A stretch of DNA of 64,000 nucleotides from Bacteroidales bacterium (GTDB lineage Bacteria; Bacteroidota; Bacteroidia; Bacteroidales; VadinHA17), in contig JALHSP010000147.1 in NCBI GenBank assembly GCA_022865305.1, positions 62,001 to 126,000 of the forward strand, read 5' to 3'. Made by a program: the position numbers and the translations under genes. The notes under the pieces were generated by a model. The model was not told the DNA's origin. It did not search any database and worked only from the letters and a program-made list of their open reading frames with translations. Shown piece after piece: positions 129 through 59,053 of the stretch. Each line of letters starts with the position of its first letter. Positions within the stretch are counted from its first letter, which is position 1.

Positions 129-164
129 CCTTTGTGCCTGAAACCTTTCGCCTTTTGCCTTATT
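129..164. repeat. Heptamer ladder directly after the cytochrome gene
   Basis: CC(T)-headed words recur at 129, 137, 144, 151 and 158, that is with steps of 8, 7, 7 and 7 nt (CCTTTGTG, CCTGAAA, CCTTTCG, CCTTTTG, CCTTA). The run ends on the stop codon of the cytochrome gene. It belongs to a set of similar ladders in the window with different word sequences. Confidence 0.6.
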
Positions 165-1662
165 AATACAGATATTTATGGCATTCAGAACAGTTTGATT
201 CTTTCCAGATTGTTCCAATATCTACAGGATGCCGGAATTCAAATGTATCCCTGATGTTTGTAAACTGCATCATTCCCGGTTTGCCCTGACCGACAATTGT
301 ATGGCAAAGATTACAATCCCGCGTTATTTTTTGCCCGCTTTCTGATATGAAAGCATCATTATGGCATCTGAAACAGCCTTCAGATTCAAGGTGCCCGATA
401 TGGTCGGGATAGACATCGTAAGTCACTTTCATGCGTGGGAAGGTATTCTGGCTGAATGCATTTTGAATTGCGATAACTGATTTGTCAATCTGGTCACTAT
501 TCTTTGTATAATAATCACCGACATCTGATTTATAATAACTTATAATGTCTTCCCTTATCTGTGTCAGCGCGGTATCCTTATCGGGGAATGTGTTTCTCAG
601 TAATCCCATTGCGACTTTTTTCATAAACGGAATATCCTTTGAGATTGCTCCTGTCAGCATTGCTTTATTGAAATAAACCGATGGTGAATTGTAATTATGC
701 GAAGGCCGGTTATGGCAATCAATACAATCCATTGTTCGTGAATTAGCAGCACCAATCAGACTGTCGGATACAGGATAGTCAGGATTTCTGAAAACAGTAA
801 CCTCACCGGTTTCTTTATTTATATACCTGACATATGTTATAATTTCGCGTTTGTCATTTTCGGAAATATATTCAATATTTACCGAGGGATTTATGTGCCA
901 GTGTATTCCCTCGTTAAAGCCAAGTGAACTATGCTCAGGACCAATTTTCATCTGAAGCATTACATCCCATTCGGAATTAAGGGAATCAGCCAGATAATAC
1001 CTGTTTGACTGCAGTGTTCTTGCATAAAACTTTTGAGGCCAGTGGCACCTTTCACATGTTTCCCTTGCCGGACGGAGGTCGTGGAGAGGAGTTTCAATTG
1101 GAGAGGGATATGTTTTTGTAAGAGTTGCATAGACCTGGTACAACCCGGAAATTTTGGACTTAACATACCATGATGCACCGGAACCCACATGGCACTCAAC
1201 ACATGTTACATTGGCATGAGGGGAATTCTGGTAAGCCGTATATTCCGGCTCCATCACTTTGTGACAGAGAGTTCCGCAGAATTCGACCGATTCAGTGATA
1301 TGATATGCCTCAAAACTTCCGTATGTGGAAAGGAAAAGAAAAATAATTGTCGCGATTGTGAATATTATAAATGCTTTTCTATGCCTGGGATTATTAAGAT
1401 TAATGACCGGCAACTGTCTTTTTTCTTCCTCTGAAGCTTTTCTTAATTTTCTCCTGCTTATAACCATACCTAAAAGGATCATTATTAATCCAAGCAATAG
1501 AAAACCCGGAAGAATGATATAGATGAATAAACCCAGATTTGTGTTGCTTTTATTAAAAATAGTCGAGATAATAAAAAGTACAATTATCAACAGAAAATTA
1601 AGCACAGCAATTAATGAACCGATTATTGTAATCCAGTTCCTTGATGATGGCGGAAATTTCAT
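163..1662 (-). CDS. Multiheme cytochrome c, NapC/NirT type (7 hemes)
   Basis: Membrane-anchored periplasmic electron carrier, expected to accept electrons from the quinol pool. Three hydrophobic segments (about residues 10-33, 43-68 and 97-117) precede a first heme-binding site CGTLCH near residue 129, followed by the family pattern KVMEPEYTAYQNSPH and CVECH near 154. Five more CxxCH sites follow: CERCH (~203), CIDCH (~313), CFRCH (~430), CNLCH (~450) and CSECH (~493). The first site has three residues between the cysteines, which this subfamily often shows. The N-terminal half matches NapC/NirT-like proteins; the C-terminal half with four to five extra hemes is an extension. No reductase gene is adjacent, so the terminal acceptor is unknown. 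Confidence 0.88.
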   Translation of the reverse strand: MKFPPSSRNWITIIGSLIAVLNFLLIIVLFIISTIFNKSNTNLGLFIYIILPGFLLLGLIMILLGMVISRRKLRKASEEEKRQLPVINLNNPRHRKAFIIFTIATIIFLFLSTYGSFEAYHITESVEFCGTLCHKVMEPEYTAYQNSPHANVTCVECHVGSGASWYVKSKISGLYQVYATLTKTYPSPIETPLHDLRPARETCERCHWPQKFYARTLQSNRYYLADSLNSEWDVMLQMKIGPEHSSLGFNEGIHWHINPSVNIEYISENDKREIITYVRYINKETGEVTVFRNPDYPVSDSLIGAANSRTMDCIDCHNRPSHNYNSPSVYFNKAMLTGAISKDIPFMKKVAMGLLRNTFPDKDTALTQIREDIISYYKSDVGDYYTKNSDQIDKSVIAIQNAFSQNTFPRMKVTYDVYPDHIGHLESEGCFRCHNDAFISESGQKITRDCNLCHTIVGQGKPGMMQFTNIRDTFEFRHPVDIGTIWKESNCSECHKYLY

Positions 1663-1816
1663 AGGAAAAATGTTTTAATGATCAGCCAGAGTAAATATAG
1701 AAAATAAATGGATTCAAAGCCAGTATACTGATAAGTATCAGCCAATACCTTTGTTCTGTCGGGTTTTAAATCTAAATTTCTTTATCAGGGATTCTGTCAG
1801 ATTGTGAATATTCAGG

Positions 1817-2425
1817 TCAACTCTCTTCCAGCTTGTCAGAAACAATTTTTTTCAAACCGAGATAAGAATTTACGACAATCAGATCCTTATTATCATCAAT
1901 AACATTTTGAGGAGGCTGAAATAAAATGCCTAGTTCTGCTTTTCTAAGCATCTGTATATCATTATATGAGTCACCAATAGCTATTACTTTATAATTAAGA
2001 TTTTGCAGTGCTTCCACAACTTTCATTTTTGCATCTGGCTGCCGCAGATTATAGTCTGTTATCATTCCATCCTTACCTATAGTCAGGTGATGACAAAACA
2101 GTACCGGCCAACCCATCTTCTCAAGAAGAGGATCGGCAAATTCTCTGAAGGTATCGGAAACTACAACCATTTGCACTCGACCATGGAGCCAGTTTATAAA
2201 ATCGAGAGCACCTGGCATTAATTCCAGCAGATAAATTACCTTCTGAATATCGTTTATTGTTATACTATGCTGTCGGAGTATCTCAAGTCTTCGCTTCATA
2301 AGTGCATTATAATCATTAATATCACGGGTGGTAAGTTTAAGTTCATCTATTTCGGTCCACCTTGCGACATTTATCCACACTTCCGGGACAAGCACTCCTT
2401 CAAGATCACAACAAATAATATACAT
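1817..2425 (-). CDS. thrH: ThrH: phosphoserine phosphatase / homoserine phosphotransferase
   Basis: HAD-superfamily protein of 202 aa, the usual ThrH length. Motif I is DLEGVLVPE near the N terminus (DxEGxLxPE, typical of ThrH rather than SerB), the motif II serine lies in VVSDTFREF, and motif III/IV is GDSYNDIQML. Pseudomonas ThrH moves phosphate from phosphoserine to homoserine and can bypass ThrB. The gene is last in thrA-thrC-thrH (13 bp after thrC), and no GHMP-type homoserine kinase or phosphoglycerate-mutase-like gene is present in the operon. I infer that it supplies phosphohomoserine for threonine synthesis. Whether thrB exists elsewhere in the genome cannot be seen. Confidence 0.9.
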   Translation of the reverse strand: MYIICCDLEGVLVPEVWINVARWTEIDELKLTTRDINDYNALMKRRLEILRQHSITINDIQKVIYLLELMPGALDFINWLHGRVQMVVVSDTFREFADPLLEKMGWPVLFCHHLTIGKDGMITDYNLRQPDAKMKVVEALQNLNYKVIAIGDSYNDIQMLRKAELGILFQPPQNVIDDNKDLIVVNSYLGLKKIVSDKLEES

Positions 2426-2438
2426 ACCTAAAGCTGTT

Positions 2439-3794
2439 TTAAGAATTTTTGAGAATATAGTTTCTGAACAGGTTATAATTATTATTTAAAGATACATATT
2501 CTTCTTCCTGATCCGACTTGCTGCCAATCGAATCGGGAGTTGACGGAATAAAATTCAGAATCCGGAAGATCTCATTACTGAATTTTGCAGGGTGAGCTGT
2601 TTCAAGTGAAATGCAGAGTTGATTTTCAGCATCAGGATCCGGATTTTGTTTTAAATACTCCTTTAATCCCTGCCAGGCAACGGCTCCATGAGGTTCAAGA
2701 AGAAGTCCGAATTGCCTGTAACAATTCGCAATAGTTTCTTTGGTTTTAACATCAGAGATGCTTACTGCAAAAAGATCTTTACGCATTTTTTGCAGATCAG
2801 GTACTTGTATAATTTCCCCCGATTCATTCATTTTTCCTCCGTATAAAGCAATGATTCTTGCCAGATTACTTGGATGTCCGACATTCATTGCGCTGGATAT
2901 ACAATTTTTTGATGGTGAAATTTTCGCATAATTTCCTGTCTTCAGAAAAACAGGGACTTCGTCATTCTCATTTGTTGATATGACAAAACATTTTACCGGT
3001 AGTCCCATCTCACGGGCTATCAAACCACCTGACAGGTTACCTAAATTTCCAGATGGTACGCTGAAAACAACCTGATCATCAATCTTTCCTGAAAGGTGCG
3101 ACCATGCATAAAAATAATAGACTGACTGGGGGAGAAGCCTGCCAATATTTATTGAGTTGGCTGATGAAAGCCTGATATGGGATAATGACGTATCCATAAA
3201 TGCTTCCTTTACCAGCTTCTGGCAATCATCAAACTTTCCGTCGATTGCAAAAACCTGAATATTTTTTTTAAGTGTGGTCATCTGTTTCCTTTGCAATTCT
3301 GTAACCTCCTTAAACGGAAACAGGATAATAACTCTGATGTTTTCAAGATCATAAAAAGCATTGGCGACTGCACTTCCTGTATCTCCTGATGTTGCAGTCA
3401 ATATGGTAATGTGTTGATCATCAATTTTCAGATAGTATTGCATAAGTCTGCCCATAAGAAGCGCGGCAAAGTCCTTAAATGAAGCTGTTGGTCCATGGTC
3501 GAGGCGCATCAAGTAATTCCTGTCATGCACTTTTTCGATCGGGATTTCAAATCTGTATGCATTAACACAAATATTATACAGTTCATCTCTGTCAATTTCA
3601 TCAAAAAGGAATCTGCCAAGAATATCAGTCGCGACTTCCGGATAATTCTTGCCGGAAAGTGCCTCAAGCTCATCAGCAGGTATTTCTGGTATATTTCCAG
3701 GCATATACAATCCTCCGTCAGGCGCAAGACCTTTCAGAAGAGCTTCTCTGAATGATACCTTCGGAGATCTAAGGTTCGTGGAATAATATGTCAC
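2439..3794 (-). CDS. thrC: Threonine synthase
   Basis: PLP enzyme converting O-phosphohomoserine to threonine. Visible hallmarks are the N-terminal YYSTN, the signature GLAPDGGLYMP, the PLP lysine in GPTASFKDFA, the phosphate-binding SGDTGSAV and, further on, SVPSGNLGNL. The frame is open to a TTG at 3809, but I prefer the GTG at 3794: it gives MTYYSTN..., the normal family N terminus, and it keeps the heptamer ladder (3809-3880) out of the coding region. thrA lies upstream and thrH 13 bp downstream, so the three form one operon. Confidence 0.93.
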   Translation of the reverse strand: MTYYSTNLRSPKVSFREALLKGLAPDGGLYMPGNIPEIPADELEALSGKNYPEVATDILGRFLFDEIDRDELYNICVNAYRFEIPIEKVHDRNYLMRLDHGPTASFKDFAALLMGRLMQYYLKIDDQHITILTATSGDTGSAVANAFYDLENIRVIILFPFKEVTELQRKQMTTLKKNIQVFAIDGKFDDCQKLVKEAFMDTSLSHIRLSSANSINIGRLLPQSVYYFYAWSHLSGKIDDQVVFSVPSGNLGNLSGGLIAREMGLPVKCFVISTNENDEVPVFLKTGNYAKISPSKNCISSAMNVGHPSNLARIIALYGGKMNESGEIIQVPDLQKMRKDLFAVSISDVKTKETIANCYRQFGLLLEPHGAVAWQGLKEYLKQNPDPDAENQLCISLETAHPAKFSNEIFRILNFIPSTPDSIGSKSDQEEEYVSLNNNYNLFRNYILKNS

Positions 3795-3808
3795 CGATTT
3801 ATTCCGCA

Positions 3809-3880
3809 ACTTTTTACTTTTTACTTTTTACTCTCATCGCTCACCCCTCACCGCTAAACGCTAAACGCTAAACGCTAAAC
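3809..3880. repeat. Phase-locked heptamer ladder between thrA and thrC
   Basis: Reading in steps of seven from 3809 gives ACTTTTT three times, then ACTCTCA, TCGCTCA, CCCCTCA, CCGCTAA and ACGCTAA three times. Each word differs little from its neighbour, so the unit drifts from ACTTTTT to ACGCTAA without losing phase. The right end overlaps the thrA stop codon (3875-3877) and the left end abuts thrC. It is the clearest of the ladders in the window. Confidence 0.85.
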
Positions 3881-6307
3881 ATTCACAACCCTCATCAGGT
3901 CAGCAAAAACACCGGCTGCGGTCACATCTGCTCCTGCACCATATCCTTTTATCACCATCGGCAATTCGTGATAACGTTCAGTAGTCAGGAGTACAATATT
4001 ATTGCTTCCGACAAGGTTGTACGATGGATGATCTGCGTCAACGCTGATAAGCTCAACTTTTGCCTTGCCATTATCGAGTGTGGCAAAAAATCTCCATTTT
4101 CTGTTCAGTTTCACAAGCTCCTTTCTTTTCTTCTCGAATTCAGCATCAAAATCTTTTACTTTATTAAAAAAGTCATTTATATCTCCTTCAAAACACTCAT
4201 CAGGGAGAAACTTCTTCACTTCAACATCTTTTTCCTCAATAGGATATCCGGCTTCCCGGGATAGTATCAGTATTTTTCTTACGACATCCGTACCGCTCAG
4301 ATCCATTCGCGGATCAGGTTCCGAATATCCTTTCTCTCTGGCCTTGCGGATGGCAGTACTAAATGGCACCTCAGGGCTTAATTCATTGAATATGAAATTC
4401 AGAGTACCTGATAATACCGCTTCAATTTTATAAATTTTATCACCACTTACAACAAGATCATTTATAGTCTTGATGATTGGAAGACCCGCACCAACGGTCG
4501 TTTCATACATAAAACGCACTCCCCGTTGATTTGCAATTAATTTAAGTTGTTGATAATAACTGTATTCTGAAGAACAGGCAATTTTATTTGCCGTAACAAT
4601 TGAAACATAGTTTGAAAGAATTTCTCTGTATTTAGTGGCAACATCTGCATCAGCAGTACAGTCAATGAAGACGGAATTTCTGAGATTCATTCTGATCATC
4701 TGCTGAATGAATAGCGAAATGTCTGTTTTTTCACCAAGGTTTTTGAGATCTTCATTGTAGTTTTCAATAGCAATTCCTTTTTTATCAATAAGCATTTTTC
4801 TGGAATTAGCTACCGCCATCAGATTAACCTTAAGACTATGTTCCCTGAGAAGCATTTCATGCTGTTTTTGAAATTGTTTCAACAGGCTGGATCCCACAAG
4901 ACCGGTTCCTGCAATAAACAAATACATTTCTTTATAACGGGAAAGGAAAAAACCATCGTGTATGACATTCAATGCTTTTTTTAGACTTTCATTCTTTATA
5001 ACGACAGAAATATTCAACTCTGATGAGCCCTGTGCAGTTGCTATAACATTTATACCGTTTCTTCCAAGTGACCTGAAAAGTGTTGCAGAAATGCCAGGTG
5101 TGTTTTTCATTTTTTCACCTACGATAGCTATTATGGACAGGTTTTTTTCAATCAGGATCTTAAGCTCATTGTTTTGAATTATTTCGCGTTCGAATTCATT
5201 ATTGATTGCTTCGTTTGCTGCAGCTGAATCTGATGGCTTGACTGCAAAAGTTATTGAATATTCTGATGAAGCCTGCGTAATAAGGATTATATTAATATCC
5301 TGTTTTGCCAATGCCCCGAATAATCGCATTGAAGTTCCTGTAACTCCAACCATTACTGGTCCCTGCAAAGTTATCAGGTCGATATGATCAATTGAAGAAA
5401 TACCTTTTATAGGGCTGGGGCTTTCATCAGAAAACTTATTACTGATTATAGTTCCTTTAAGTTCCGGATTAAGTGTATTTCGTACACTTATTGGAATGTT
5501 TTTCTTATATACCGGGCGAAGGGTAGGGGTATAGATGACTTTAGCGCCAAAATGCGATAACTCCATAGCTTCAGCGTATGTCAGGCTTTCAATCGAATAG
5601 GCTTTTTCAACTTTTTTCGGATCAGCAGTCATAAAACCATCTACATCAGTCCAGATTTCAAGGATCTCTGCGTCAAGTGCCGCAGCGATTATTGCAGCGG
5701 TATAATCCGATCCCCCTCTTCCCAGTGTCGTAGTATCACCCCGGGCATTGCTTGCTATGAATCCGGGAACAATTACATTCTTTGTAATATGCTTTATTTT
5801 TTCCCTGATCAGGGAGTTTGTCAGGGCAAAGTCAACATTCGCATTTCCGAATTTATCATCAGTTTTAATAAATTCCCTGGAGTCAAGGTAAATACTTCCG
5901 TCAAGTAAATTGCATATTATTAATGATGATAACCTCTCTCCGTAACTAAGTACCTGGTCAAGCGAGTGCCCGCTCAACTCACGGAGTAGATATATCCCGT
6001 TAATTGTCTCCCGAAGCTCATTGAACAGAATTTCAGCCTCTTTTAATACCTGATGTTGTTCAGTTTTATTTTTAATTAAGCTCTCAATAAATTCTTTATG
6101 TCTGATTATGATCTTTTCTAAAAGATCCGAATACTCATCATTTCGTGAAGCTGCAAATTCACCTAACTGATACAACTGATCTGTAATGCCTTCAAAAGCT
6201 GAAATAATTACGATACAAGGAGAAGACTTCGATTCAATAATATGTTTTACTTTCCTGATCCGTTCAGGAGAACCCACTGATGAACCGCCGAATTTCAGAA
6301 CTTTCAT
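3875..6307 (-). CDS. thrA: Bifunctional aspartokinase / homoserine dehydrogenase
   Basis: Catalyses the first and third steps from aspartate to threonine. The N-terminal aspartokinase domain starts with KFGGSSVGS and has the TLGRGGSDYTA substrate motif. Central ACT-type regulatory segments (about residues 310-460) include VGEKMKNTPGISATLF. The C-terminal homoserine dehydrogenase begins with the dinucleotide-binding AGTGLVGSSLL near residue 470 and contains YETTVGAGLPIIKTINDL. At about 810 aa it matches E. coli ThrA in length. I take the ATG at 6307 rather than the TTG at 6313, because MKVLKFGGSS is the standard beginning. It is first in the thr operon. A terminator-like hairpin 20 bp upstream suggests control by attenuation. 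Confidence 0.95.
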   Translation of the reverse strand: MKVLKFGGSSVGSPERIRKVKHIIESKSSPCIVIISAFEGITDQLYQLGEFAASRNDEYSDLLEKIIIRHKEFIESLIKNKTEQHQVLKEAEILFNELRETINGIYLLRELSGHSLDQVLSYGERLSSLIICNLLDGSIYLDSREFIKTDDKFGNANVDFALTNSLIREKIKHITKNVIVPGFIASNARGDTTTLGRGGSDYTAAIIAAALDAEILEIWTDVDGFMTADPKKVEKAYSIESLTYAEAMELSHFGAKVIYTPTLRPVYKKNIPISVRNTLNPELKGTIISNKFSDESPSPIKGISSIDHIDLITLQGPVMVGVTGTSMRLFGALAKQDINIILITQASSEYSITFAVKPSDSAAANEAINNEFEREIIQNNELKILIEKNLSIIAIVGEKMKNTPGISATLFRSLGRNGINVIATAQGSSELNISVVIKNESLKKALNVIHDGFFLSRYKEMYLFIAGTGLVGSSLLKQFQKQHEMLLREHSLKVNLMAVANSRKMLIDKKGIAIENYNEDLKNLGEKTDISLFIQQMIRMNLRNSVFIDCTADADVATKYREILSNYVSIVTANKIACSSEYSYYQQLKLIANQRGVRFMYETTVGAGLPIIKTINDLVVSGDKIYKIEAVLSGTLNFIFNELSPEVPFSTAIRKAREKGYSEPDPRMDLSGTDVVRKILILSREAGYPIEEKDVEVKKFLPDECFEGDINDFFNKVKDFDAEFEKKRKELVKLNRKWRFFATLDNGKAKVELISVDADHPSYNLVGSNNIVLLTTERYHELPMVIKGYGAGADVTAAGVFADLMRVVNV

Positions 6308-6326
6308 TTCCAAATAATATTTTTAT

Positions 6327-6348: not shown

Positions 6349-6353
6349 CAATT

Positions 6354-8626: not shown

Positions 8627-9871
8627 GTGAGAATCAAGTCGTACACCTTAAAGTTCATCAGTCTGGGTAAAGATAAAAAACTTTATTTAAGGTATTATGT
8701 CACTGTAAATAAAAAACCAATGACCAAAAATATACCCTGTGAAATAGTGTTAACTGCTGACCAGATAAGGGCACTTAATGAAGGTACATTGGGCGGTAAT
8801 ATACAAAAGGTAGCGTTTCAGATAAGAAGAAAATATCAAGATGTAATTGAAGTTCTTAATGTCCGTGATAATTCATACCCTCTGCCAGAACAGATTGATG
8901 AATATTTCAATGTTACCGAGAAACAACTACAGATTGAATATCTGATTAATCAGTTCATGCACAACCTGAATGTAAAAAAAAGCACAAAAAAGAACTATGG
9001 TTATATAATGAATACCTTTAAAAAGTTCTTTGAAAGTAACATAAGTGATTCTACTATAAAAAAAATAGCAAATAAGAAAACACTTAAAGATTTTGAATTC
9101 TGGTTTAAAAGTTCGCATGAAAGTAGAAGGATAGAAGCAGCGCAAAAGGGGGAAAAGAATAAGATAGTAACACCGTTGACAGTTTTTAATAATGTTTATG
9201 TTGTTAAGATGTTCTTGAATTTTATTGCAGATAAATATGAACTTGATAGGGTAGATGTTAAGTTAAAGCAACCGAAGTACAGTAATAAATGGCATGTAAC
9301 AGAAGAAGATGTTGAACAACTATTAAAATATCAACCAAAAACACAATTAGAAGCAGATGTGCTTGATATTATAAGAATCAATAAAACCATTGGATTAAGA
9401 ATTTCAGAAATTCTGAAGATAGAACCAGAAAACATAAAAGAATTTAGTGATTACACAGCAATCCGTTTTATAGAAGAAAAAAAAGCAAGGGAACGCATTG
9501 TAATTATTGCAGATGAACAAGCACGAAAAATAATAGGGGATAGGCTTCTCGAAAACAAATTCTGGAACATTCCCAACTATTTTATCTTTGATAAATTAGT
9601 TAAGAAGATTGCTAAAGAGCAATTTGGTGAGCAAACAATAAAAATATATAAAGTAAATTCATTTAAAAGTGGTTATGAAGACCTGAAGAAATGTGATATT
9701 ATAAGTTCACATGCTTTCAGGAGATATGCAGCAGAACGAAATATTTCAAAGTATGGCATTGATGTGGCAAGGACAATGGGTGGTTGGTCGGACTTTCAAG
9801 TTATAACCCGACATTATGCTGAATTTATGAATGAAGAAGATTTAAAAGAGAAATTATTGAAGAAGAAATAA
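8627..9871 (+). CDS. Tyrosine recombinase / integrase
   Basis: Site-specific recombinase of 414 aa. The N-terminal ~100 residues are a lysine-rich, arm-binding-like region, residues ~105-210 a SAM-like core-binding domain, and the rest the catalytic domain. Catalytic residues are visible: Arg in GLRISEIL (~258), HxxR in SHAFRRYA (~362-365) and the nucleophile Tyr in TRHYAEF (~397); the second His is Trp (GGWSD), a known variation. The start is GTG. A TAAATTTG box (8614-8621) ends 5 bp before it, so the transcript may be almost leaderless. It points into the accessory block from the candidate attL. Its AT-rich codon use resembles that of the small genes at the other end. Confidence 0.9.
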   Translation: MRIKSYTLKFISLGKDKKLYLRYYVTVNKKPMTKNIPCEIVLTADQIRALNEGTLGGNIQKVAFQIRRKYQDVIEVLNVRDNSYPLPEQIDEYFNVTEKQLQIEYLINQFMHNLNVKKSTKKNYGYIMNTFKKFFESNISDSTIKKIANKKTLKDFEFWFKSSHESRRIEAAQKGEKNKIVTPLTVFNNVYVVKMFLNFIADKYELDRVDVKLKQPKYSNKWHVTEEDVEQLLKYQPKTQLEADVLDIIRINKTIGLRISEILKIEPENIKEFSDYTAIRFIEEKKARERIVIIADEQARKIIGDRLLENKFWNIPNYFIFDKLVKKIAKEQFGEQTIKIYKVNSFKSGYEDLKKCDIISSHAFRRYAAERNISKYGIDVARTMGGWSDFQVITRHYAEFMNEEDLKEKLLKKK

Positions 9872-17398: not shown

Positions 17399-18832
17399 AT
17401 GAAAATTAAACGGACAATAATTCTGCCCAACATAGTTTTAATAAGCCTGTCTTGCATATTAATGGCATCATGCAACAGTAAGTCAGTAAAGAATGGCATG
17501 CTTTTAGTAACTGAGGCTCCTCAGAATATTCAGACTCCGGATTACATTAGCGGTGAATCATGGCGTTATTTAGCCGGTGCAAGGATCAGTGCATTCATGC
17601 CGGGTAAACCTTCTTCACTAAAAGTCCTTACTGAAAACTTCTTTTCAGCATCTTCCCCAAAAATATCTTATGATGGCAGGTTTATGCTTTTCACTGCACA
17701 GCAAAAGCAGGATGAATCATGGCAGATCTGGGAAATGAACCTGTATAACAGAAAATGCAGGAAAATTACCTCATTTAATGATAACTGCACCGATCCGGTT
17801 TATTTGCCGGGCGGACGGTTGGCATTCACTAAACTAACTATAAATGACACCGTTAAGTCGGCTCATTGCCTTTACACATGCAATCTGGATGGTTCCGGTC
17901 TGAGACAAATCACCTTCAGTCCCAATGCATGCTTTGCAACTACTGTATTAAAAGATGGCCGTTTGCTGACAGTCAGCCGCCAGTTGCTGCCCGATAAGGA
18001 AGATCCGATGTTAATGGTCATGCGGCCCGATGGTACCAAAGCCGATATGTTTTACAAGGGTGCCGGAGGCAGCGTCTTAACCAGCAGTGCACATGAGACA
18101 TCTGACGGTAAAATAGTATTTATAGAAGCTGATAAAGGAACCCCGGCGGCAGGCAGATTGGTTTCTGTAAGTTATAACAGACCATTGCATACCCGGATTG
18201 ACCTGACATCAGGGATTGCCGGAAATTTTTGCTCTGTTCTGCCTCTCGGACCTGACAATTATTTAGTTTCCTGCTGCATGTCAGGTTCTGAACGTTATGC
18301 ACTTTATGAGTTCGATCCTGTGAAAAAGTCAGTTGGGCAGGAAGTTTTGACCGATCCCGAATACAACATACTGGGTGCTGTCCTTGTCGAAGAAAATGAA
18401 AGACCCAAAAAGCTGCCAAGCGAAGTGGATCTTCAGGTAAAAACCGGATTGTTGCTTTGCCAGGATATAAATTTTCTGAACCCGATGCTGCCTGACAATT
18501 CTTCTGATATCCGTAAAGCTATTAAGATAGAAGTGCTTGGAGTTGATACAACATACGGAGTGGTTGAAGTTGAAAAAGACGGATCGTTTCAGTTGAAAGC
18601 TATGGCCGACACTCCATTCAGGATAAGAACCCTGGATGAGAAGAACAATATTGTTAACGGTCCCTGCTCATGGTTATGGTTACGCCCAAACGAACGTCGC
18701 GGATGTATAGGGTGCCACGAAGATCCGGAAATGGTACCTGAAAACAAAGTATCGTTGGCAATAAGGAAGCCACCGGTAATAATACCTGTTCATGTTACGG
18801 AGGTTAAAGAGAAGATAGTAGAATTGGAATAG
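17399..18832 (+). CDS. Propeller lipoprotein with hydrazine-synthase-alpha-like region and one heme site
   Basis: Lipoprotein (lipobox ILMASC) of 477 aa. Residues ~50-330 hold PD40-like propeller repeats (ISYDGRFMLFTA, CTDPVYLPGGRLAFTK, CFATTVLKDGRLLTV). The C-terminal ~130 residues (LLCQDINFLN ... VEKDGSFQLKAMADTPFRI ... WLWLRPNERRGCIGCHEDPE) resemble the middle domain of hydrazine-synthase alpha-like proteins and end in a single heme motif CIGCH near residue 437. That resemblance says little about catalysis: these domains are widespread in Bacteroidetes and Planctomycetes exported cytochromes. It ends 2 bp before the next cytochrome gene, which suggests that the two products exchange electrons. 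Confidence 0.75.
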   Translation: MKIKRTIILPNIVLISLSCILMASCNSKSVKNGMLLVTEAPQNIQTPDYISGESWRYLAGARISAFMPGKPSSLKVLTENFFSASSPKISYDGRFMLFTAQQKQDESWQIWEMNLYNRKCRKITSFNDNCTDPVYLPGGRLAFTKLTINDTVKSAHCLYTCNLDGSGLRQITFSPNACFATTVLKDGRLLTVSRQLLPDKEDPMLMVMRPDGTKADMFYKGAGGSVLTSSAHETSDGKIVFIEADKGTPAAGRLVSVSYNRPLHTRIDLTSGIAGNFCSVLPLGPDNYLVSCCMSGSERYALYEFDPVKKSVGQEVLTDPEYNILGAVLVEENERPKKLPSEVDLQVKTGLLLCQDINFLNPMLPDNSSDIRKAIKIEVLGVDTTYGVVEVEKDGSFQLKAMADTPFRIRTLDEKNNIVNGPCSWLWLRPNERRGCIGCHEDPEMVPENKVSLAIRKPPVIIPVHVTEVKEKIVELE

Positions 18833-18834
18833 AT

Positions 18835-48047: not shown

Positions 48048-48132
48048 CAGGTTGCAGGTTGCAGGTTGCAGGTTGATTGGTAGTCTTAGACTATTATAAA
48101 GAAGGAAGAACGAGCACCGAGTACCGAGTACC
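48048..48132. repeat. Two heptamer ladders in a convergent gap
   Basis: CAGGTTG is repeated four times without interruption at 48048-48075. A second, drifting ladder runs GAAGGAA, GAACGAG, CACCGAG, TACCGAG, TACC at 48101-48132 and ends on the stop of the thioredoxin-like gene. The two sets are not in phase with each other. Confidence 0.75.
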
Positions 48133-50841: not shown

Positions 50842-50876
50842 GGTTTGGGGTATGCGGTATGCGGTACGCGGTTTGA
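50842..50876. repeat. Heptamer ladder after the cupin gene
   Basis: Five in-phase words: GGTTTGG, GGTATGC, GGTATGC, GGTACGC, GGTTTGA, starting 5 bp after the cupin stop. A partial inverted copy (CCGCACACC, about 50893) could pair with GGTATGCGG, giving a bidirectional terminator-like fold between convergent genes. Confidence 0.75.
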
Positions 50877-50906
50877 AGAGATCAACCTTATGCCGCACAC
50901 CAGCAT

Positions 50907-52850: not shown

Positions 52851-54308
52851 ATGAGCGATATACGCAAACTTGAACCAAAACAACTCTGGAACTTCTTCCA
52901 TGAAATAACACAGATACCGCATCCTTCAAAAAAGGAAAAGAAACTTGTTGATTATGTTGTAAAATTCGGCAAAGACCACAAGCTTGAAACAATTGTTGAT
53001 AAACCCGGTAATGTTATAATCAGGAAACCGGCAACTAAAGGTATGGAGAAGCGCAAAGGCGTGATATTCCAGACACATCTCGATATGGTGCCACAGAAAA
53101 ACAGTGATAAAAAACACGATTTCGAGAAAGACCCCATCAGAACAATTGTTGACGGGGAGTGGGTTAAAGCAGATGGAACAACCCTGGGGTCAGATAATGG
53201 TATTGGCGTTGCTACTACCCTTACAGTTCTGGCATCCAAAGATATCGTTCATGGGCCGGTCGAAGCTCTTTTTACTATTGATGAAGAGACCGGAATGACA
53301 GGCGTTTTCGGACTCAAATCAGGCTTATTAAAGGGTGATATATTGATGAATCTTGACTCAGAGGATGAAGGTGAGCTGTATGTCGGCTGCGCCGGAGGCA
53401 TTAATGTAGTAATAAACAAGAACTATAGAGAGGAAAAATCACCCAAGGGAATGGCTGCCTTCCGGATAGTGGCAAAAGGTCTGAAGGGGGGACATTCAGG
53501 TGTTGACATTGCCCTGGGAAGAGCCAACTCTAACAAAATCATGTTCAGGTTCCTGATGCAGGCAGAATCTGATTTTGGTATCAGGCTTGCTGAAGCGGCA
53601 GGCGGTGATCTCCGCAATGCCATTCCCCGAGAATCATATGCTGTTGCACTTGTACCTGACATTAAAGTAAAAGAATTCGAGAAATTTGTTAAGGGATACG
53701 AGAAAATGTACAGGACGGAATTTTCTGAGACAGAGCAGGATCTCTCATTTACGTGTAAAAAAACCGGAATTCCTCTCAAGGTAATGAACCAGGGAGACCA
53801 GTACAGGATCATACGTGCTCTTTTTGCATGCCCTAATGGAGTGCAACGTATGAGTCAGGCAATGAAAGGACTGGTAGAAACTTCAAATAACCTTGCAATT
53901 GTAAAATGCATCGGAGGCAAGTTTGAGTGTCATAACCTTACGCGCAGCTCTGTTGATTCATCGAAAGAAGCTACTGCATGGAAAATCGCAGCAGTATTTC
54001 ACCTCATTGATGCTGAAGTAACATTGTCAGGCAGTTATCCGGGATGGAAGCCAAATATTCAATCTCTTATTCTTAAGGTAATGAGCGGCGTTTATAAAAA
54101 AATGTATGGTAAAATCCCGGAGATTAAAGCTATACATGCCGGGCTCGAATGTGCAATCATAGGAGGTGTATACCCGAAACTGGATATGATCTCATTTGGT
54201 CCTACAATTAAATTCCCTCATTCTCCTGATGAAAAAGTAAATATTCCTTCGGTTAAAAAGTTTTATGATTTTCTTTGCGAAACCCTGAAACAGGTGCCGG
54301 TTAAATAA
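52851..54308 (+). CDS. pepD: Aminoacyl-histidine dipeptidase (M20 family)
   Basis: 485 aa di-zinc cytoplasmic peptidase acting on Xaa-His dipeptides such as carnosine. M20C motifs are QTHLDMVPQ (zinc His and nearby Asp), GSDNGIGVA (bridging Asp), DEETGMTG (catalytic and zinc Glu), NLDSEDEGE (zinc Asp), KGGHSGVDI and, late, HAGLECAIIG with its zinc His/Glu. The length fits PepD. Monocistronic, with a ~280-bp upstream gap; its 3' end is separated from the convergent biotin carrier gene by a heptamer ladder. Confidence 0.95.
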   Translation: MSDIRKLEPKQLWNFFHEITQIPHPSKKEKKLVDYVVKFGKDHKLETIVDKPGNVIIRKPATKGMEKRKGVIFQTHLDMVPQKNSDKKHDFEKDPIRTIVDGEWVKADGTTLGSDNGIGVATTLTVLASKDIVHGPVEALFTIDEETGMTGVFGLKSGLLKGDILMNLDSEDEGELYVGCAGGINVVINKNYREEKSPKGMAAFRIVAKGLKGGHSGVDIALGRANSNKIMFRFLMQAESDFGIRLAEAAGGDLRNAIPRESYAVALVPDIKVKEFEKFVKGYEKMYRTEFSETEQDLSFTCKKTGIPLKVMNQGDQYRIIRALFACPNGVQRMSQAMKGLVETSNNLAIVKCIGGKFECHNLTRSSVDSSKEATAWKIAAVFHLIDAEVTLSGSYPGWKPNIQSLILKVMSGVYKKMYGKIPEIKAIHAGLECAIIGGVYPKLDMISFGPTIKFPHSPDEKVNIPSVKKFYDFLCETLKQVPVK

Positions 54309-54309
54309 A

Positions 54310-54386
54310 GCTCAGGATTCATGGCTCACGACGCACGACGCTCAGATTATTTATCCTTGCGCCTTGAGTCGTGCGCCTTGTGTCCA
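54310..54386. repeat. Eleven in-phase heptamers filling a convergent gap
   Basis: Words in steps of seven: GCTCAGG, ATTCATG, GCTCACG, ACGCACG, ACGCTCA, GATTATT, TATCCTT, GCGCCTT, GAGTCGT, GCGCCTT, GTGTCCA. Left and right halves are partly inverted (CGCACGAC with GTCGTGCG), so the RNA could fold into a hairpin from either strand. It occupies almost all of the 80 bp between two stop codons. Confidence 0.75.
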
Positions 54387-54388
54387 TG

Positions 54389-54919
54389 CTAATCAACCTT
54401 TATCTCCACCAGGAGATCGTCCTTCATTACGTTGTTATTGGCTTTGGCGGCGACTTTTACAACTTTCCCGTTTACAGGTGACTGGATTTCGTTCTGCATC
54501 TTCATAGCCTCAAGTATGACAACCGGCTCACCGCGCAGGACATTTGATCCTTCTCTGACAAGGACGTCAATGATTTTACCGGGCATAGGAGCTTTTACAA
54601 ACTCCTGCTCGGTTTTACCTTTTGACGAACTCAGCACCTTCATCCTCTGAAGGGAAAAGGGCGTTTCCACTGAAAAAGTGTAACTTATATCGTTAAATAG
54701 TATTTCGTATTTATTCTGCCGTGACCTGACAACCTCAACCGGGTACTTACGGTTTTTCCAGAGGATATAAGTTCCGTATTTTTCATCAGTTTTAAGTTTT
54801 ATTTCGTAATTCCTTTTTCCGATTTTTATCTTATGTTTTAGCGGAAGGGAAAAACTGAATTTCCTTTTTTCTGATGAAAGGGCATATAACTTTTTTATCC
54901 CGAGCTTATCGTTCAACAT
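54389..54919 (-). CDS. Biotin carboxyl carrier subunit of an acyl-CoA carboxylase
   Basis: 176 aa. The C-terminal ~75 residues are a biotinyl domain with APMPGKIIDVLVREG and the biotin-attachment motif EAMKMQNEI (Lys modified). The N-terminal ~95 residues are beta-rich and resemble the linker/interface part of acyl-CoA carboxylase carriers. Last of three genes transcribed as carboxyltransferase, biotin carboxylase, carrier, 15 bp after the carboxylase stop. Confidence 0.9.
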   Translation of the reverse strand: MLNDKLGIKKLYALSSEKRKFSFSLPLKHKIKIGKRNYEIKLKTDEKYGTYILWKNRKYPVEVVRSRQNKYEILFNDISYTFSVETPFSLQRMKVLSSSKGKTEQEFVKAPMPGKIIDVLVREGSNVLRGEPVVILEAMKMQNEIQSPVNGKVVKVAAKANNNVMKDDLLVEIKVD

Positions 54920-54934
54920 TACTGATTATCTTAA

Positions 54935-56440
54935 TTAAAACTGGTTAACTCTTTTATTCATCAACCACGGGCTCATCTCTTTCCCGTTTTCGAAATCAAC
55001 ATTAATACTGTCTTCTTTCAGATTCTCCTCAACAAACAGTTTTGTTGCCAGCCATGCTGCAAGTATCTCTTCATATTCACTATTGAAATAGTACTTATCC
55101 AGGTCGTTTTCAATAAATGCTGTTGTAAAAGTCCCGTTCTGGAATTTATCATTGCGGACAAGCAGCCTGAAAAAAGGAAGGGTAGTTTTTGTTCCCCTGA
55201 TCCATACTTTGTCAAGCGCCATTTTACAGTTTTTGATTGCATCCCTGCGATCCTTGCCTTTAACAATAAGCTTGGCGATCATTGAGTCGAAGTTTGCGAC
55301 TATAACGGAGCCTGACTGGATGCCGGTATCAATCCTTACATATGGATCTGAAGGCATGCTCAGGTTTTCAATTTTCCCTGGAGCAGGGGCAAATCCTGAC
55401 TGAACATCTTCGGCATTTATCCTGCATTCAATAGCCCAGCCTTTAAGCTTTATGTCTTCCTGCCGGTATTTAAGCTTCTCCCCGTTGGCAATAAGTATCT
55501 GCTGTTCAATGAGGTCGATACCTGTGATGATCTCTGTAACAGGATGTTCAACCTGTATTCTCGTATTCATTTCCATGAAATAGAAATTCTTATCCGAATC
55601 GAGAAGGAACTCAACAGTCCCTGCTGAATGATAATTAACTTCTTTTGCAATCTGAACAGCCATTTTACCCATCACCTCCCTTAGCTTTTCATCCAGCGCA
55701 CAGGAAGGAGCTTCTTCGAGGAGCTTTTGATGCTTTCTTTGTATCGAACACTCCCTCTCACCAAGATGGATAACATTTCCATGTGTGTCTCCTAGTATTT
55801 GAAATTCAATATGTTTTGGATTTTCAATATATTTTTCAATAAACACTGAGGGATCGTTAAATGCTTTTTCAGCTTCTTTGCTGGCTATGATGAACATTCT
55901 TTCCATCTCTTCAGCTTTCCGGATTATCCTCATTCCACGACCACCACCGCCTGATGCAGCTTTTACAATTACCGGATAACCTATTTTTGAAGCTATTGCA
56001 ACAGCCTCCTCTTCATTTGAAATGTTTCCTTCGCTTCCCATTGCCATAGGGATGCCGTTTTTCATTGCCAGTTTCCGTGCAATGGTCTTGTTCCCCATTT
56101 TGTAAATAGCATCCGGCGAAGGCCCGATAAAAATAATTTTATTATCAATGCATTTATCCGCAAAGTAGGCGTTTTCTGCAAGAAACCCATAACCCGGATG
56201 AACAGCATCAGCTCCGGTATTGAGTGCTATAGCGATCAGTTTCTCTATATCGAGAAACACAGGTATTTCTGAAACATCTTCACTATTATCAAATATCTCA
56301 TCAGCAAAGGAAAGATACATTGCATTTGGTTCAAGGGCAGTTTTTATGGCAACAGTTGAGATTTTCATCAGTCGTGCAGTTTTCATTATCCTGATTGCAA
56401 TTTCACCTCTGTTTGCTATGAGTATCTTCTTTATTTTCAT
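54935..56440 (-). CDS. Biotin carboxylase subunit of acyl-CoA carboxylase
   Basis: 501 aa from the ATG at 56440 (MKIKKILIANRGEIAIRIMK, the usual start); a GTG at 56458 would add six residues. ATP-grasp features: VKAASGGGGRGMRII (glycine-rich ATP loop), EKYIENPKHIEFQILGD, GERECSIQRKHQKLLEEAP, and MNTRIQVEHPVTE with catalytic residues. ATP-dependent carboxylation of biotin for propionyl-/acetyl-CoA carboxylase. It is the middle gene of the operon. Confidence 0.94.
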   Translation of the reverse strand: MKIKKILIANRGEIAIRIMKTARLMKISTVAIKTALEPNAMYLSFADEIFDNSEDVSEIPVFLDIEKLIAIALNTGADAVHPGYGFLAENAYFADKCIDNKIIFIGPSPDAIYKMGNKTIARKLAMKNGIPMAMGSEGNISNEEEAVAIASKIGYPVIVKAASGGGGRGMRIIRKAEEMERMFIIASKEAEKAFNDPSVFIEKYIENPKHIEFQILGDTHGNVIHLGERECSIQRKHQKLLEEAPSCALDEKLREVMGKMAVQIAKEVNYHSAGTVEFLLDSDKNFYFMEMNTRIQVEHPVTEIITGIDLIEQQILIANGEKLKYRQEDIKLKGWAIECRINAEDVQSGFAPAPGKIENLSMPSDPYVRIDTGIQSGSVIVANFDSMIAKLIVKGKDRRDAIKNCKMALDKVWIRGTKTTLPFFRLLVRNDKFQNGTFTTAFIENDLDKYYFNSEYEEILAAWLATKLFVEENLKEDSINVDFENGKEMSPWLMNKRVNQF

Positions 56441-56462
56441 ATTATGTAATTCCTTCACATTG

Positions 56463-56482
56463 AGACGGCCCGCAGTCCGTCT
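56463..56482. repeat. Short inverted repeat between carboxylase genes
   Basis: AGACGG (56463-56468) and CCGTCT (56477-56482) around an 8-nt loop, 23 bp upstream of the chosen biotin carboxylase start. Possibly an mRNA processing or stabilising stem; no T-tract supports termination. Confidence 0.4.
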
Positions 56483-56521
56483 TTACAATTTATCAATAAA
56501 CACTTTATATAGCTTTTTGTT

Positions 56522-56556
56522 CCTTGTACCCTGCACCCTGAACCCTGAACCTTTAA
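56522..56556. repeat. Heptamer ladder after the carboxyltransferase gene
   Basis: In-phase words CCTTGTA, CCCTGCA, CCCTGAA, CCCTGAA, CCTTTAA. The last word contains the stop codon (56553-56555) of the carboxyltransferase gene. Confidence 0.75.
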
Positions 56557-58109
56557 AGCGGCATATTTCCATGTTTCCTTGAAGGCACCTTAACCCATTT
56601 GTTACTCAGGGCATTAAAAGCAGAAACGATTTTTTTTCTGGTTACTGCCGGATCTATAACTTCGTCAATATAGCCGCTTTCATCAGCAATGAAGGGATTA
56701 GCGATTTTATCCCGGTATTTTTTAACAAGCTGTTTTTTGAGCTCTGCCGGATTTTTTGATACGGCAAGTTCTTTGCGATATAATATTGCGACTGCTCCGT
56801 CTGGTCCCATCACAGCAATTTCTGCAGAAGGCCATGCAAAGCTGAAATCACCACCGAGGTTTTTACTGTTCATCACAATAAAAGCCCCGCCATAAGCTTT
56901 TCTCAGAATCACTGTAATCTTTGGTACAGTAGCTTCGGCGTAAGCAAAAAGCATTTTTGCACCATGCCTTATAATGCCTGAATGTTCCTGATCGACACCA
57001 GGAAGGAAGCCCGGAACATCTTCAAGTGTCAGGATCGGAATATTGAAAGCATCACAGAATCTGATAAATCGCGCACCTTTTGTTGATGAGTCAATATCAA
57101 GGACTCCTGCAAGGACTTTTGGCTGATTTGCCACAATTCCGATTGTTTTACCTTTTAATTTGGCAAATCCTGTTACCAGGCTTTGGGCGAATAATTCCGC
57201 AGTCTCGAAAAAGCTATTCCGGTCTACAATATTGTTAATGACATCTTTTACATCGTAAGCTTTGTTTGGATCGTCAGGAACAATATCTCTCAGTTTTTCA
57301 TTAATATCGCTGCACGAACCGTCATCGGCCATCACAGGCGGATTTTCCACATTATTTGACGGAAGGTATGAAAGAAATTTCTTCAGTGCCAGAATTGTAT
57401 TCTCCTCGTCATCATAAATCATATGTGCAACACCACTTTTGCTAGCATGAATCTCTGCACCACCCAGCTGTTCGAATGTGACATCTTCATTCAGAACCTC
57501 CTTAACAACGTTTGGACCTGTTACAAACATGTAGCTTGTATGGTTTACCATGAATACAAAATCTGTAAGAGCAGGGGAGTAGACTGCACCTCCGGCAGCA
57601 GGGCCCATTATGACAGATATCTGGGGAATAATACCTGAAGAATGAATGATATTGTGAAAAATAGTAGCATATCCGCTCAAACTTGCCACACCTTCCTGTA
57701 TCCGGGCACCACCCGAATCCATGATTCCTATAATCGGAGATCCCATTTTAAGTGCCATTTCCTGTATTTTGGCAATCTTTTTTGCATGGACAACACCAAG
57801 AGATCCACCCATAATGGTAAAGTCCTGAGCATAGGCGAACACAAGGCGTCCATTAACTTTTCCATGCCCCACGATCACTCCATCCCCGAATGTCCTCTCA
57901 ACCTTTCCAAATTCAACAGGTTGATCCGCAGGAGTGACATAAGTATAAATTTCTTCAAAAGTTCCGGAGTCGAAAAGAAGGCTTATTCGCTCATGTGCAG
58001 TAAGTTTGCCTTTCGAATGCTGCTTCTCGGCCTGTTTCGGACTATATTGCTTTTTCAACGCCTCCTGACGTTCAATGAAGGCTTTGTAACTTTTACCCGA
58101 TAAGTCCAT
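56553..58109 (-). CDS. Acyl-CoA (propionyl/methylmalonyl-CoA) carboxyltransferase subunit
   Basis: 518 aa from the ATG at 58109 (MDLSGKSYKAFIERQEAL); a TTG at 58115 adds two residues. Crotonase-like carboxyltransferase halves: GKLTAHERISLLFDSGTFEE, IGIMDSGGARIQEGV and MGPAAGGAVYSPALTDF in the first, and PILTLEDVPGFLPGVDQEH and AYGGAFIVMNSKNLGGD in the second. It transfers CO2 from carboxybiotin to propionyl- or acetyl-CoA, or in reverse from methylmalonyl-CoA. No sodium-pump subunits are present, so with its two partners it reads as a soluble propionyl-CoA carboxylase. Confidence 0.93.
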   Translation of the reverse strand: MDLSGKSYKAFIERQEALKKQYSPKQAEKQHSKGKLTAHERISLLFDSGTFEEIYTYVTPADQPVEFGKVERTFGDGVIVGHGKVNGRLVFAYAQDFTIMGGSLGVVHAKKIAKIQEMALKMGSPIIGIMDSGGARIQEGVASLSGYATIFHNIIHSSGIIPQISVIMGPAAGGAVYSPALTDFVFMVNHTSYMFVTGPNVVKEVLNEDVTFEQLGGAEIHASKSGVAHMIYDDEENTILALKKFLSYLPSNNVENPPVMADDGSCSDINEKLRDIVPDDPNKAYDVKDVINNIVDRNSFFETAELFAQSLVTGFAKLKGKTIGIVANQPKVLAGVLDIDSSTKGARFIRFCDAFNIPILTLEDVPGFLPGVDQEHSGIIRHGAKMLFAYAEATVPKITVILRKAYGGAFIVMNSKNLGGDFSFAWPSAEIAVMGPDGAVAILYRKELAVSKNPAELKKQLVKKYRDKIANPFIADESGYIDEVIDPAVTRKKIVSAFNALSNKWVKVPSRKHGNMPL

Positions 58110-58330
58110 ACCCAATTAGATTTAATTAAATATCAGGATTAGTCTCAGAATGAAATATTGATCTGTTTCTTTTCCCTGCTATTTTTTCGGGTTCAAAAAT
58201 AGTCAATCTCAGGGTAATTCCAAATTAAACTTCGACCGTGTATTGTATAAGAAATTTAAGTTTAAGTATTTCAGCTTGTTAAGCAGAGGTATTCTTCGAA
58301 TCATTTTCACTACCTCACCCTGTCTCCATT

Positions 58331-58951
58331 TCACTTTTTGACCGGTTTAAATAACCCTTTGGCATTTGATCCCAGCAGCCCTGCCTTAAGCATTGAGTTG
58401 CTGGCTTTATATAATTCCCGGATCATTTTATTACTTAACACAGGAAAGTGGTGAAGCGATTCGATTTTGTCACCGATATATTCCAGATCTTCATCAGTCG
58501 TCGCCCAGTGACGTGATTTGAATTTAGAAAGATCGAACGGGAGAGAGTATGACCTCAGGGTCTTTTCACCATATACATTGAAAAAGAAATCAAAGTAGGA
58601 CATAACAAGTTCACGGAGAGTTCTGTAGACCGGTTCCCTGAAACGTAACGAGGTGAAATTCGATTTGGCGACGGCACCCCAATGTCCATTTTCCTTAAAA
58701 ACTGCAATAACATGGTCATCATCATTCACCGCTCTCATATCGACAATAAGAGGCCTGTATCCAATAAATTCGAGGGCAGCTGCAGCAAAAAGTGCCCCCT
58801 CGAAGCAGTGAGCTGATCTCTTTTTCATCACCCACCGTGGTGACCTGCATTCGTAATTGGGATTATAGCTGATTGTATCGAGAAATACCTGTATCTTATC
58901 AGGATTGCTGAGTGTTTTCAGGAACTTGATTTCTTCTTTTGTCCACTCCAT
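58331..58951 (-). CDS. Transglutaminase-like fold protein
   Basis: 206 aa, cytoplasmic by appearance. It has a papain/transglutaminase-like pattern: KKRSAHCFEGALFAAAALEF (Cys), PLIVDMRAVNDDDHVIAVFK (Asp/His), then WGAVAKSNFTSLRFREPVYR. Conserved in many Bacteroidetes with unknown function; a Cys-His-Asp triad is plausible but not proven. It lies between the sugar kinase gene and the carboxylase operon on the same strand. Confidence 0.7.
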   Translation of the reverse strand: MEWTKEEIKFLKTLSNPDKIQVFLDTISYNPNYECRSPRWVMKKRSAHCFEGALFAAAALEFIGYRPLIVDMRAVNDDDHVIAVFKENGHWGAVAKSNFTSLRFREPVYRTLRELVMSYFDFFFNVYGEKTLRSYSLPFDLSKFKSRHWATTDEDLEYIGDKIESLHHFPVLSNKMIRELYKASNSMLKAGLLGSNAKGLFKPVKK

Positions 58952-59017
58952 AAAAGTTCTTTATCTGTTTCCTATTATCTTTCCACCACGGATTTCACGG
59001 AGCGATAGCGATTTTCC

Positions 59018-59053
59018 TGCCTTTATGCCCCTGTGCCCTTGTGCCTTTAAGCC
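59018..59053. repeat. Octamer ladder after the kinase gene
   Basis: TGCCTTTA, TGCCCCTG, TGCCCTTG, TGCCTTTA, AGCC: GCC recurs exactly every 8 nt from 59019 to 59051. It lies directly after the kinase stop codon. The only ladder here with period 8. Confidence 0.7.

What the first reader, a model, noticed from the sequence alone, without database searches (positions are those of the whole stretch)
129..59053. A family of heptamer ladders placed directly after stop codons, present in both flanks and absent from the putative island
Seven loci: 129-164, 3809-3880, 48048-48132, 50842-50876, 54310-54386, 56522-56556, 59018-59053 (period 8). Each has a different word set, most abut or overlap a stop codon, and they fill gaps of 60-120 bp in both co-directional and convergent contexts. 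In reading 8.6-45.2 kb I found none. They resemble the heptanucleotide short tandem repeats known from some cyanobacteria only in unit length. Possible roles: transcript 3' ends, a spacer of fixed helical phase, or scars of a replication or repair process.
Basis: partly seen in the sequence, partly recalled or inferred. Interest (0 to 1): 0.75.

Follow-up and report, generated by a model that had tools for sequence, protein, structure and literature searches.

The report
Inverted seven-letter ladders around IVP genes
The strange seven- and eight-letter DNA ladders after genes are real, and they look like the arms, mostly orphaned, of a small stem-loop element built around a gene so far known mainly from ribosomal RNA insertions.

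Summary
The ladders are real. All seven claimed gaps beat dinucleotide shuffles at lag 7 or 8 (p 0.001-0.014). In 464 kb only lags 7, 8 and the harmonic 14 stand out; shuffles give none. Co-directional ladders sit just after stops (37 of 77 within 12 bp; 12 expected). A strand rule appeared: within 15 bp of a stop they are G-rich on that gene's coding strand in 55 of 64 (8 opposite, 1 tie).

Sister species led to the cause. One gap holds ladder arms in one species and the same arms around an ORF in the other. The ORF is PF05635, the 23S rRNA IVS protein S23/IVP. In Bacteroidota, 42 of 76 IVP genes have inverted complementary flanks, often 7/8-mer ladders, against 1 of 253 control genes. On plasmids, mostly cyanobacterial, it is 16 of 25 against 0 of 89 at a laxer cut-off.

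Best explanation: IVS-like stem-loop elements at gene 3' ends; most ladders, including the window's, would be ORF-less copies. That step is inferred: the window has no IVP gene, and one word-matching test failed. How the elements move is unknown.

The parts
129..164 (-). degenerate 7-mer ladder abutting the stop codon of the gene 163-1662 (-); G-rich on that gene's strand (G 11, C 5)
   Evidence: lag-7 score 8.8, p 0.014, weakest of the seven; composition
3809..3880 (-). 7-mer ladder filling the whole thrA-thrC gap, from the thrA stop codon to the TTG start taken for thrC; G-rich on the gene strand (G 24, C 5); words GTTTAGC, GGTGAGC, AGTAAAA
   Evidence: in relatives this gap runs from an overlap to 170 bp, some with other ladders, others with none detected
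48048..48075 (+). 7-mer ladder (CAGGTTG)x4 in a convergent gap, 38 bp after the stop of the + gene, G-rich on its strand
48099..48132 (-). second 7-mer ladder of the same gap, abutting the stop of the - gene. As delimited it breaks the strand rule (G 8, C 10 on the - strand); its regular part 48111-48132 follows it (G 8, C 6). No significant stem with the first ladder
50842..50876 (+). 7-mer ladder 4 bp after the stop of the + gene, G-rich on its strand (G 16, C 4)
   Evidence: (p 0.001)
50886..50901 (-). inverted partner CCTTATGCCGCACACC of the ladder 50842-50876 (short stem)
   Evidence: inverted stem score 9, p 0.045; position
54310..54386 (.). two inverted 7-mer ladders in a convergent gap, forming a hairpin between two stop codons; the first arm breaks the strand rule (G 10, C 12), the second follows it (G 11, C 9)
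   Evidence: lag-7 p 0.002, inverted stem p 0.005; RNA fold -30.8 kcal/mol, z -3.6
56522..56556 (-). 7-mer ladder (GGTTCAG family) overlapping the stop of the carboxyl transferase gene 56553-58115 (-); G 14, C 4 on its strand
59018..59053 (-). 8-mer ladder just after the stop of the gene 59058-60152 (-); G 13, C 7 on its strand
   Evidence: lag-8 score 13.4, p 0.001

Best explanation
The ladders are arms of a small stem-loop element of the IVS type. The full element reads: a G-rich ladder of 7- or 8-base units, a gene for an S23/IVP four-helix-bundle protein (PF05635), then the same ladder inverted (C-rich). It usually sits in sense orientation just after a stop codon, where an extra RNA stem does least harm. 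SHOWN here: the architecture around many IVP genes, its polarity, its recurrence across phyla, and one junction seen without the element, with arms only, and with arms plus ORF. INFERRED: that ladders without an ORF, such as those in the window, are derivatives that lost the ORF or moved without it; that the transcribed stem is bound by IVP and cut by RNase III, as reported for the 23S rRNA IVS of Coxiella (PMC4990558, passages); that arms lengthen and drift one unit at a time because IVP or a polymerase works in 7-8 base steps. NOT KNOWN: the mobility enzyme.
For: IVP genes. Of 76 distinct IVP genes with 200 bp or more on both sides, 42 have up- and downstream flanks that are inverted complements above the 99th percentile of cross-gene pairs (about 1 expected; 10 in direct orientation). 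Control short genes, from G000 only: 1 of 253; ladders on both sides 24 of 76 against 1 of 253. Leaving out the 10 IVP genes in stretches fetched for ladders or found through them: 34 of 66 inverted, 18 of 66 with both ladders (recounted).

Other phyla. 25 plasmid IVP genes (22 cyanobacterial, one each Riemerella, Gemmatirosa, Azospirillum): ladder on at least one side 22, both 14; inverted arms above the 95th percentile of cross-gene pairs 16, above the 99th 9; controls on three of the same plasmids 8, 0 and 0 of 89.

Polarity. Upstream ladders G>C 31, C>G 3, equal 2; downstream C>G 36, G>C 3; plasmids 17:2 and 16:1. Ladders near a stop have the same polarity, 55:8; convergent gaps alone 17:4; without contigs C71 and C85, 44:5 of 50.

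Site history. Between the same two genes the aligned flanks lie about 10 bp apart in G004 and 24 bp in G000 (no full element); the gap is 83 bp with arms only in G019 and 488 bp with arms plus IVP in G016.

Word and protein travel together. For IVP pairs at 70% identity or more in non-homologous places, 10 of 10 share unit length and word to within one base (from few clusters), against 2% of 566 pairs below 30%. The word of one G003 IVP occurs at its arms and on 5 further G003 contigs that have no PF05635 match; 3 single hits in 24 other genomes; none for the reversed word.

Folding. The Nostoc element RNA has z -5.4, with the arms paired.
Against: No IVP gene lies in the window (scans; one search lists none on its contig), and most ladders in the sample are not beside one. 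In G000, words of 36 solo ladders (C71 left out) are no closer to G000 IVP words than position-shuffled words: 24 within one base, null mean 28.2. Only two of the seven window gaps have a significant inverted stem, and two of nine window arms break the strand rule as delimited. Over 69 ladder gaps the inverted-arm excess is modest (7 at p<=0.05, 3.5 expected; 16 beat all of 20 shuffles). 34 of 76 IVP genes lack clear inverted arms. IVP genes are co-directional with the upstream gene only somewhat more than other neighbours (58 of 71 against 662 of 949). The overall relation of IVP identity to word distance is weak (Mantel p 0.054). No target-site duplication or enzyme was found. The sample leaned towards ladder-rich contigs.
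Confidence: 0.6

Rival explanations
1. Neutral minisatellites: replication or repair slippage with a preferred 7-8 base step makes ladders wherever DNA is unconstrained, mostly after stop codons. IVP elements merely contain such ladders; solo ladders have nothing to do with IVP.
For: Only lags 7 and 8 are enriched; arrays drift unit by unit (read); between two species with about 94% identical flanks 14 of 28 co-directional gaps keep their length against 6 of 7 divergent ones; the heptamer excess of bacteria was already attributed to the stretch bound by DNA polymerase (passages of PMC4692102 and PMC4679880); solo words do not match G000 IVP words.
Against: It does not predict the strand rule 55:8, inverted same-word arms around one gene family in several phyla, or one genome's IVP word at five further loci.
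Confidence: 0.27
2. Functional 3'-end signals: the G-rich ladder in the mRNA acts as terminator, stabiliser, or protection from Rho or R-loops, and selection keeps composition, not sequence.
For: Stop-proximal, G-rich on the transcript; the three cases folded do so better than shuffles; most Xanthomonas heptamers are transcribed (PMC4692102 abstract and passages).
Against: Ladders change or vanish between sister species; several relatives have no detected ladder between thrA and thrC; the same polarity in convergent gaps (17:4) does not fit a Rho-protection filter.
Confidence: 0.08
3. REP/RAYT-type or reverse-transcriptase-driven elements, with a Y1 transposase or a DGR-like RT acting in trans.
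For: Y1 transposases occur in 35 of 41 genomes; PF05635 resembles Avd, the accessory protein of diversity-generating retroelements (PMC10053308, passages).
Against: G019 and G006 have ladders but no Y1 match; G003 and G014 have 6 and 10 PF05635 matches but no RVT_1 match.
Confidence: 0.05

Closest known systems
Intervening sequences (IVS) of 23S rRNA with the S23/IVP ORF (Salmonella, Leptospira, Coxiella)
   Same: Inverted terminal arms forming a stem, an S23p ORF in the loop and, in Coxiella, tandem heptamers of variable number just before the ORF (PMC4990558, passages)
   Different: Here the elements lie after stop codons of protein genes, in many copies, with long 7/8-mer ladders as arms, and many ladders without ORF; RNase III cutting not tested
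G-rich heptamer repeats of Xanthomonas (GGGAATC) and Nostoc (GGGGAYT) (PMC4692102)
   Same: Unit of 7, within 50 bp of the stop on the sense strand, inverted pairs in Xanthomonas, rare between divergent genes
   Different: One word family per genome there, many words here; a G-quadruplex is not needed for words with GG only; four-helix bundle, intervening sequence and Xcc0516 are not mentioned in its main text. X. campestris encodes the PF05635-family protein XCC0516 (PDB 2gsc); its flanks could not be fetched
TAACTGA repeats of Beggiatoaceae, Cyanobacteria and Bacteroidetes (PMC4679880)
   Same: Intergenic heptamers, mixed heptamer assemblages in some Bacteroidetes
   Different: In its main genome they lie mostly just before start codons (abstract); here mostly after stops
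REP/BIME palindromes with RAYT transposases (recalled)
   Same: Dispersed palindromes at 3' ends of genes
   Different: No fixed REP core seen; Y1 transposase not needed
Diversity-generating retroelements with Avd
   Same: Homologous four-helix-bundle protein
   Different: RT absent from some IVP-rich genomes; template and variable repeats were not looked for

Membership tests
23S rRNA IVS / S23 elements | ORF of the S23/IVP family PF05635 inside the element | tested here: inconclusive
   Met for the IVP loci; no such ORF in the window
23S rRNA IVS / S23 elements | Inverted terminal arms forming a stem | tested here: inconclusive
   42 of 76 and 16 of 25 IVP loci; 2 of 7 window gaps
23S rRNA IVS / S23 elements | Located within a 23S rRNA gene | tested here: not met
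   Ladders are intergenic, mostly after stop codons of protein genes
23S rRNA IVS / S23 elements | Excision from RNA by RNase III | not testable with these tools
   Only RNA folds were made
Heptamer SSRs of the Xanthomonas/Nostoc type | Tandem units of 7 bases after stop codons, sense strand | tested here: met
Heptamer SSRs of the Xanthomonas/Nostoc type | One conserved G-tract word per genome | tested here: not met
   61 word classes among 69 ladders from 13 genomes, 38 of them in G000
REP/RAYT | Y1 transposase in the genome | tested here: not met
   No match in G019 and G006, which have ladders
Diversity-generating retroelement | Reverse transcriptase | tested here: not met
   No RVT_1 match in G003 and G014, with 6 and 10 PF05635 matches
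MITE-like DNA transposon remnant | Terminal inverted repeats with target-site duplication | tested here: inconclusive
   Inverted arms yes; no duplication seen by eye at the one site compared, which is too few

The most novel reading that the evidence does not exclude
Most heptamer and octamer repeats of bacterial intergenic DNA, including cyanobacterial STRRs and Xanthomonas GGGAATC repeats, are arms of one cross-phylum family of selfish stem-loop elements. Each family member's S23/IVP protein reads its own 7- or 8-base word module by module, and the 23S rRNA IVS is the rare copy that landed in rRNA.
Probability: 0.4. Interest if true: 0.92.

Novelty: new variant of a known kind. Interest (0 to 1): 0.8.

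Why it matters
Three old puzzles become one testable question: why bacteria have heptamer repeats at all, what the S23/IVP protein does (a homopentamer of four-helix bundles without known function, PMC4990558 passages), and whether rRNA intervening sequences are mobile. It also offers a plain reading of IVP genes inside cas operons, earlier taken as CRISPR-linked functions (PMC3936711, passages): at three such plasmid loci the gene is flanked by ladders. L351 (score 27.6) and L344 (26.6) exceed the 99th percentile of the inverted-arm null and L349 (15.8) the 95th; in L344 the upstream side itself holds ladders of both orientations. No paper making the IVP-ladder link appeared in the listings of four searches of the open library; most subscription journals, and bioRxiv, were not covered.

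Tried and rejected
Vocabulary. Ladder words are shared more than by chance (55 sharing pairs among 69 ladders, letter-shuffled null 9.5, maximum 20), but apart from contig C71 neighbouring ladders in G000 show no closer words (21 near pairs). Inverted arms as a general property of ladder gaps: only modest. Y1 transposase and reverse transcriptase as required drivers: not supported. Solo words as copies of G000 IVP words: not supported; the test has little power with 113 seven-letter and 94 eight-letter IVP words. A Rho-protection filter does not explain convergent gaps. Two-quartet G-quadruplexes and stop codons in every unit were considered from reading only and not tested. Ladder density against IVP number was not tested: the samples from IVP-poor genomes are too small.
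Full report
Observation. The seven ladders are in the sequence and each beats shuffled versions of its own gap at lag 7 or 8 (p 0.001-0.014). In 464 kb of the same genome, G000, a 4.98 Mb draft in 176 contigs, only lags 7 and 8 and the harmonic 14 stand out; shuffled sequence gives none. The nearest named records, by thrA, are Bacteroidales MAGs with isolate names such as fen_980 and Chersky. Part of the 464 kb came from contigs picked because a ladder pattern hit them, so densities are biased; contig C117, which holds the window, was taken almost whole (297 of 299 kb).

Place and strand. Co-directional ladders prefer the first bases after a stop (37 of 77 within 12 bp; 12.2 expected under uniform placement). 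Per base they are scarcer between divergent genes; per gap this holds in the relatives but not in G000. In convergent gaps it is 17 to 4, in wider Bacteroidales 10 to 0. Ladderless gaps show no such bias (237 to 275), nor do ladders nearest a start (18 to 26). Without the ladder-rich contigs C71 and C85 it is 44 to 5 of 50. In the window 7 of 9 arms follow it; the first arm of 54310-54386 and the ladder 48099-48132 as delimited do not.

Turnover. The window's 3809-3880 ladder fills the thrA-thrC gap from stop to start codon. In relatives the gap runs from an overlap to 170 bp: some carry other ladder words, many short ones (7-27 bp) and some of 57-79 bp have no detected ladder. In two species with about 94% identical flanks, 14 of 28 co-directional gaps keep their length, against 6 of 7 divergent ones.

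The link. At one junction G019 has 83 bp of inverted heptamer arms; G016 has the same arms around an ORF. Pfam names it 23S_rRNA_IVP, PF05635, E 2e-22. G000 has 18 matches at E<=0.001 (16 over Pfam's cut-off), nine of them on its two ladder-rich contigs C71 and C85. The family matches in 157 of 198 sampled Bacteroidota genomes (153 over the cut-off). At the junction the aligned flanks lie about 10 bp apart in G004 and 24 bp in G000; read by eye, G000 keeps a trace of an 8-mer ladder there and G018 holds a different filler.

Test of the link. Over 76 distinct IVP genes, 42 have inverted complementary flanks above the 99th percentile of cross-gene pairs, 10 in direct orientation; 1 of 253 control short genes of G000 does. 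An earlier, smaller control, genes of the same loci more than 1 kb from an IVP, had ladders on both sides in 2 of 58, against 15 of 36 IVP genes. Ten of the 76 lie in stretches fetched for ladders or found through them; without them it is 34 of 66. Upstream ladders are G-rich 31 to 3 (2 equal), downstream C-rich 36 to 3. The upstream neighbour is co-directional in 58 of 71, somewhat above background (662 of 949), and its stop then lies a median 82 bp from the IVP start.

Other phyla. A plasmid search with a Nostoc IVP found 45 places in 41 records. I read 25 of them (five already taken; twenty more). 22 have a ladder within 200 bp, 14 on both sides; inverted arms exceed the 95th percentile of cross-gene pairs in 16 and the 99th in 9. 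Controls on three of the same plasmids: ladder 8, both 0, inverted 0 of 89. The 25 are not all independent: L340 and L341 are 99% alike. Examples: Nostoc GGGAACA arms; Gemmatirosa 8-mers; Azospirillum 7-mers; a 9-mer case, read by eye, in Aphanizomenonaceae. In the phage collection one weak hit turned up and was not followed.

Does the word belong to the protein? At non-homologous places, IVP pairs of at least 70% identity share unit length and word to within one base in 10 of 10, from few clusters; the overall correlation is weak (p 0.054). The word of a G003 IVP lies at its arms and on five further G003 contigs without a PF05635 match, with 3 single hits in 24 other genomes and none for the reversed word. 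In G126, with one IVP match, its arm word recurs on a second contig. Against this, in G000 solo words match IVP words no better than shuffled ones.

Mechanism. Shown: architecture, polarity, site states, spread across phyla. Reported by others: in Coxiella the rRNA IVS is a stem with an S23p ORF, cut by RNase III in vitro, with tandem heptamers of variable number before the ORF (PMC4990558, passages); PF05635 is homologous to Avd (PMC10053308, passages). Inferred: transcribed arms form a stem (Nostoc element z -5.4; C71 hairpin z -5.4; window 54309-54388 z -3.6), are bound by IVP and tolerated after stop codons because cutting there spares the coding sequence. How new copies arise is open; RVT_1 and Y1 matches are absent from some genomes rich in these elements or ladders.

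Verdict. The IVP-ladder architecture I hold near certain. That the window's own ladders are its derivatives I put at about 0.6: unit length, position and, for 7 of 9 arms, polarity agree, two of seven gaps have inverted arms, but no IVP gene is in the window.

Noticed in passing
window 8627-45200: A tyrosine integrase gene (8627-9871) borders a region with FG-GAP/ASPIC-UnbV proteins, a histidine kinase, a TonB receptor and a protein with a hydrazine-synthase-alpha middle domain hit (17399-18832, E 6e-17); perhaps an island, though its GC matches the flanks.
   Followed up: partly
L103, L109, L111, L114, L125 (thrA-thrC gap) and L007 19114-19316: A different dispersed palindrome, about CCCCTCCNTGGNGGGGTTNGGGGTGGGTT or a relative of it, often beside ladders; gained and lost between sister species.
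   Followed up: no
L344, L351, L349: IVP genes with ladder flanks sit between cas6 and cas4 (twice) and between cas10 and a cmr3 family gene on cyanobacterial plasmids; they look like insertions rather than CRISPR parts.
   Followed up: partly
G006, arm word GCACAGA: The arm word of the G016 element hits ten separate contigs of G006, a genome with two PF05635 matches and no Y1 transposase match.
   Followed up: no
L240, L243, L244, L245, L246, L247, L248, L249, L250, L251, L252: One word family, GGTGTGA/GGTATGA, makes ladders at eleven G016 loci held here, up to 255 bp long.
   Followed up: partly
L175 754-10120: Along contig C71 of G000 several genes end in the ladder itself (AATCAG-TAA-TCAGTAATC), so the stop codon is part of a unit and the last codons seem ladder-derived.
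   Followed up: no
L102 (G005, thrA-thrC gap): A 6-base ladder (GGTTAA) follows the thrA stop, a rare unit length here.
   Followed up: no
L371 and L196 7571-7728: Another dispersed intergenic element of the type GTCATTGCGAGGAA...GAAGCAATCTCC with inverted ends.
   Followed up: no
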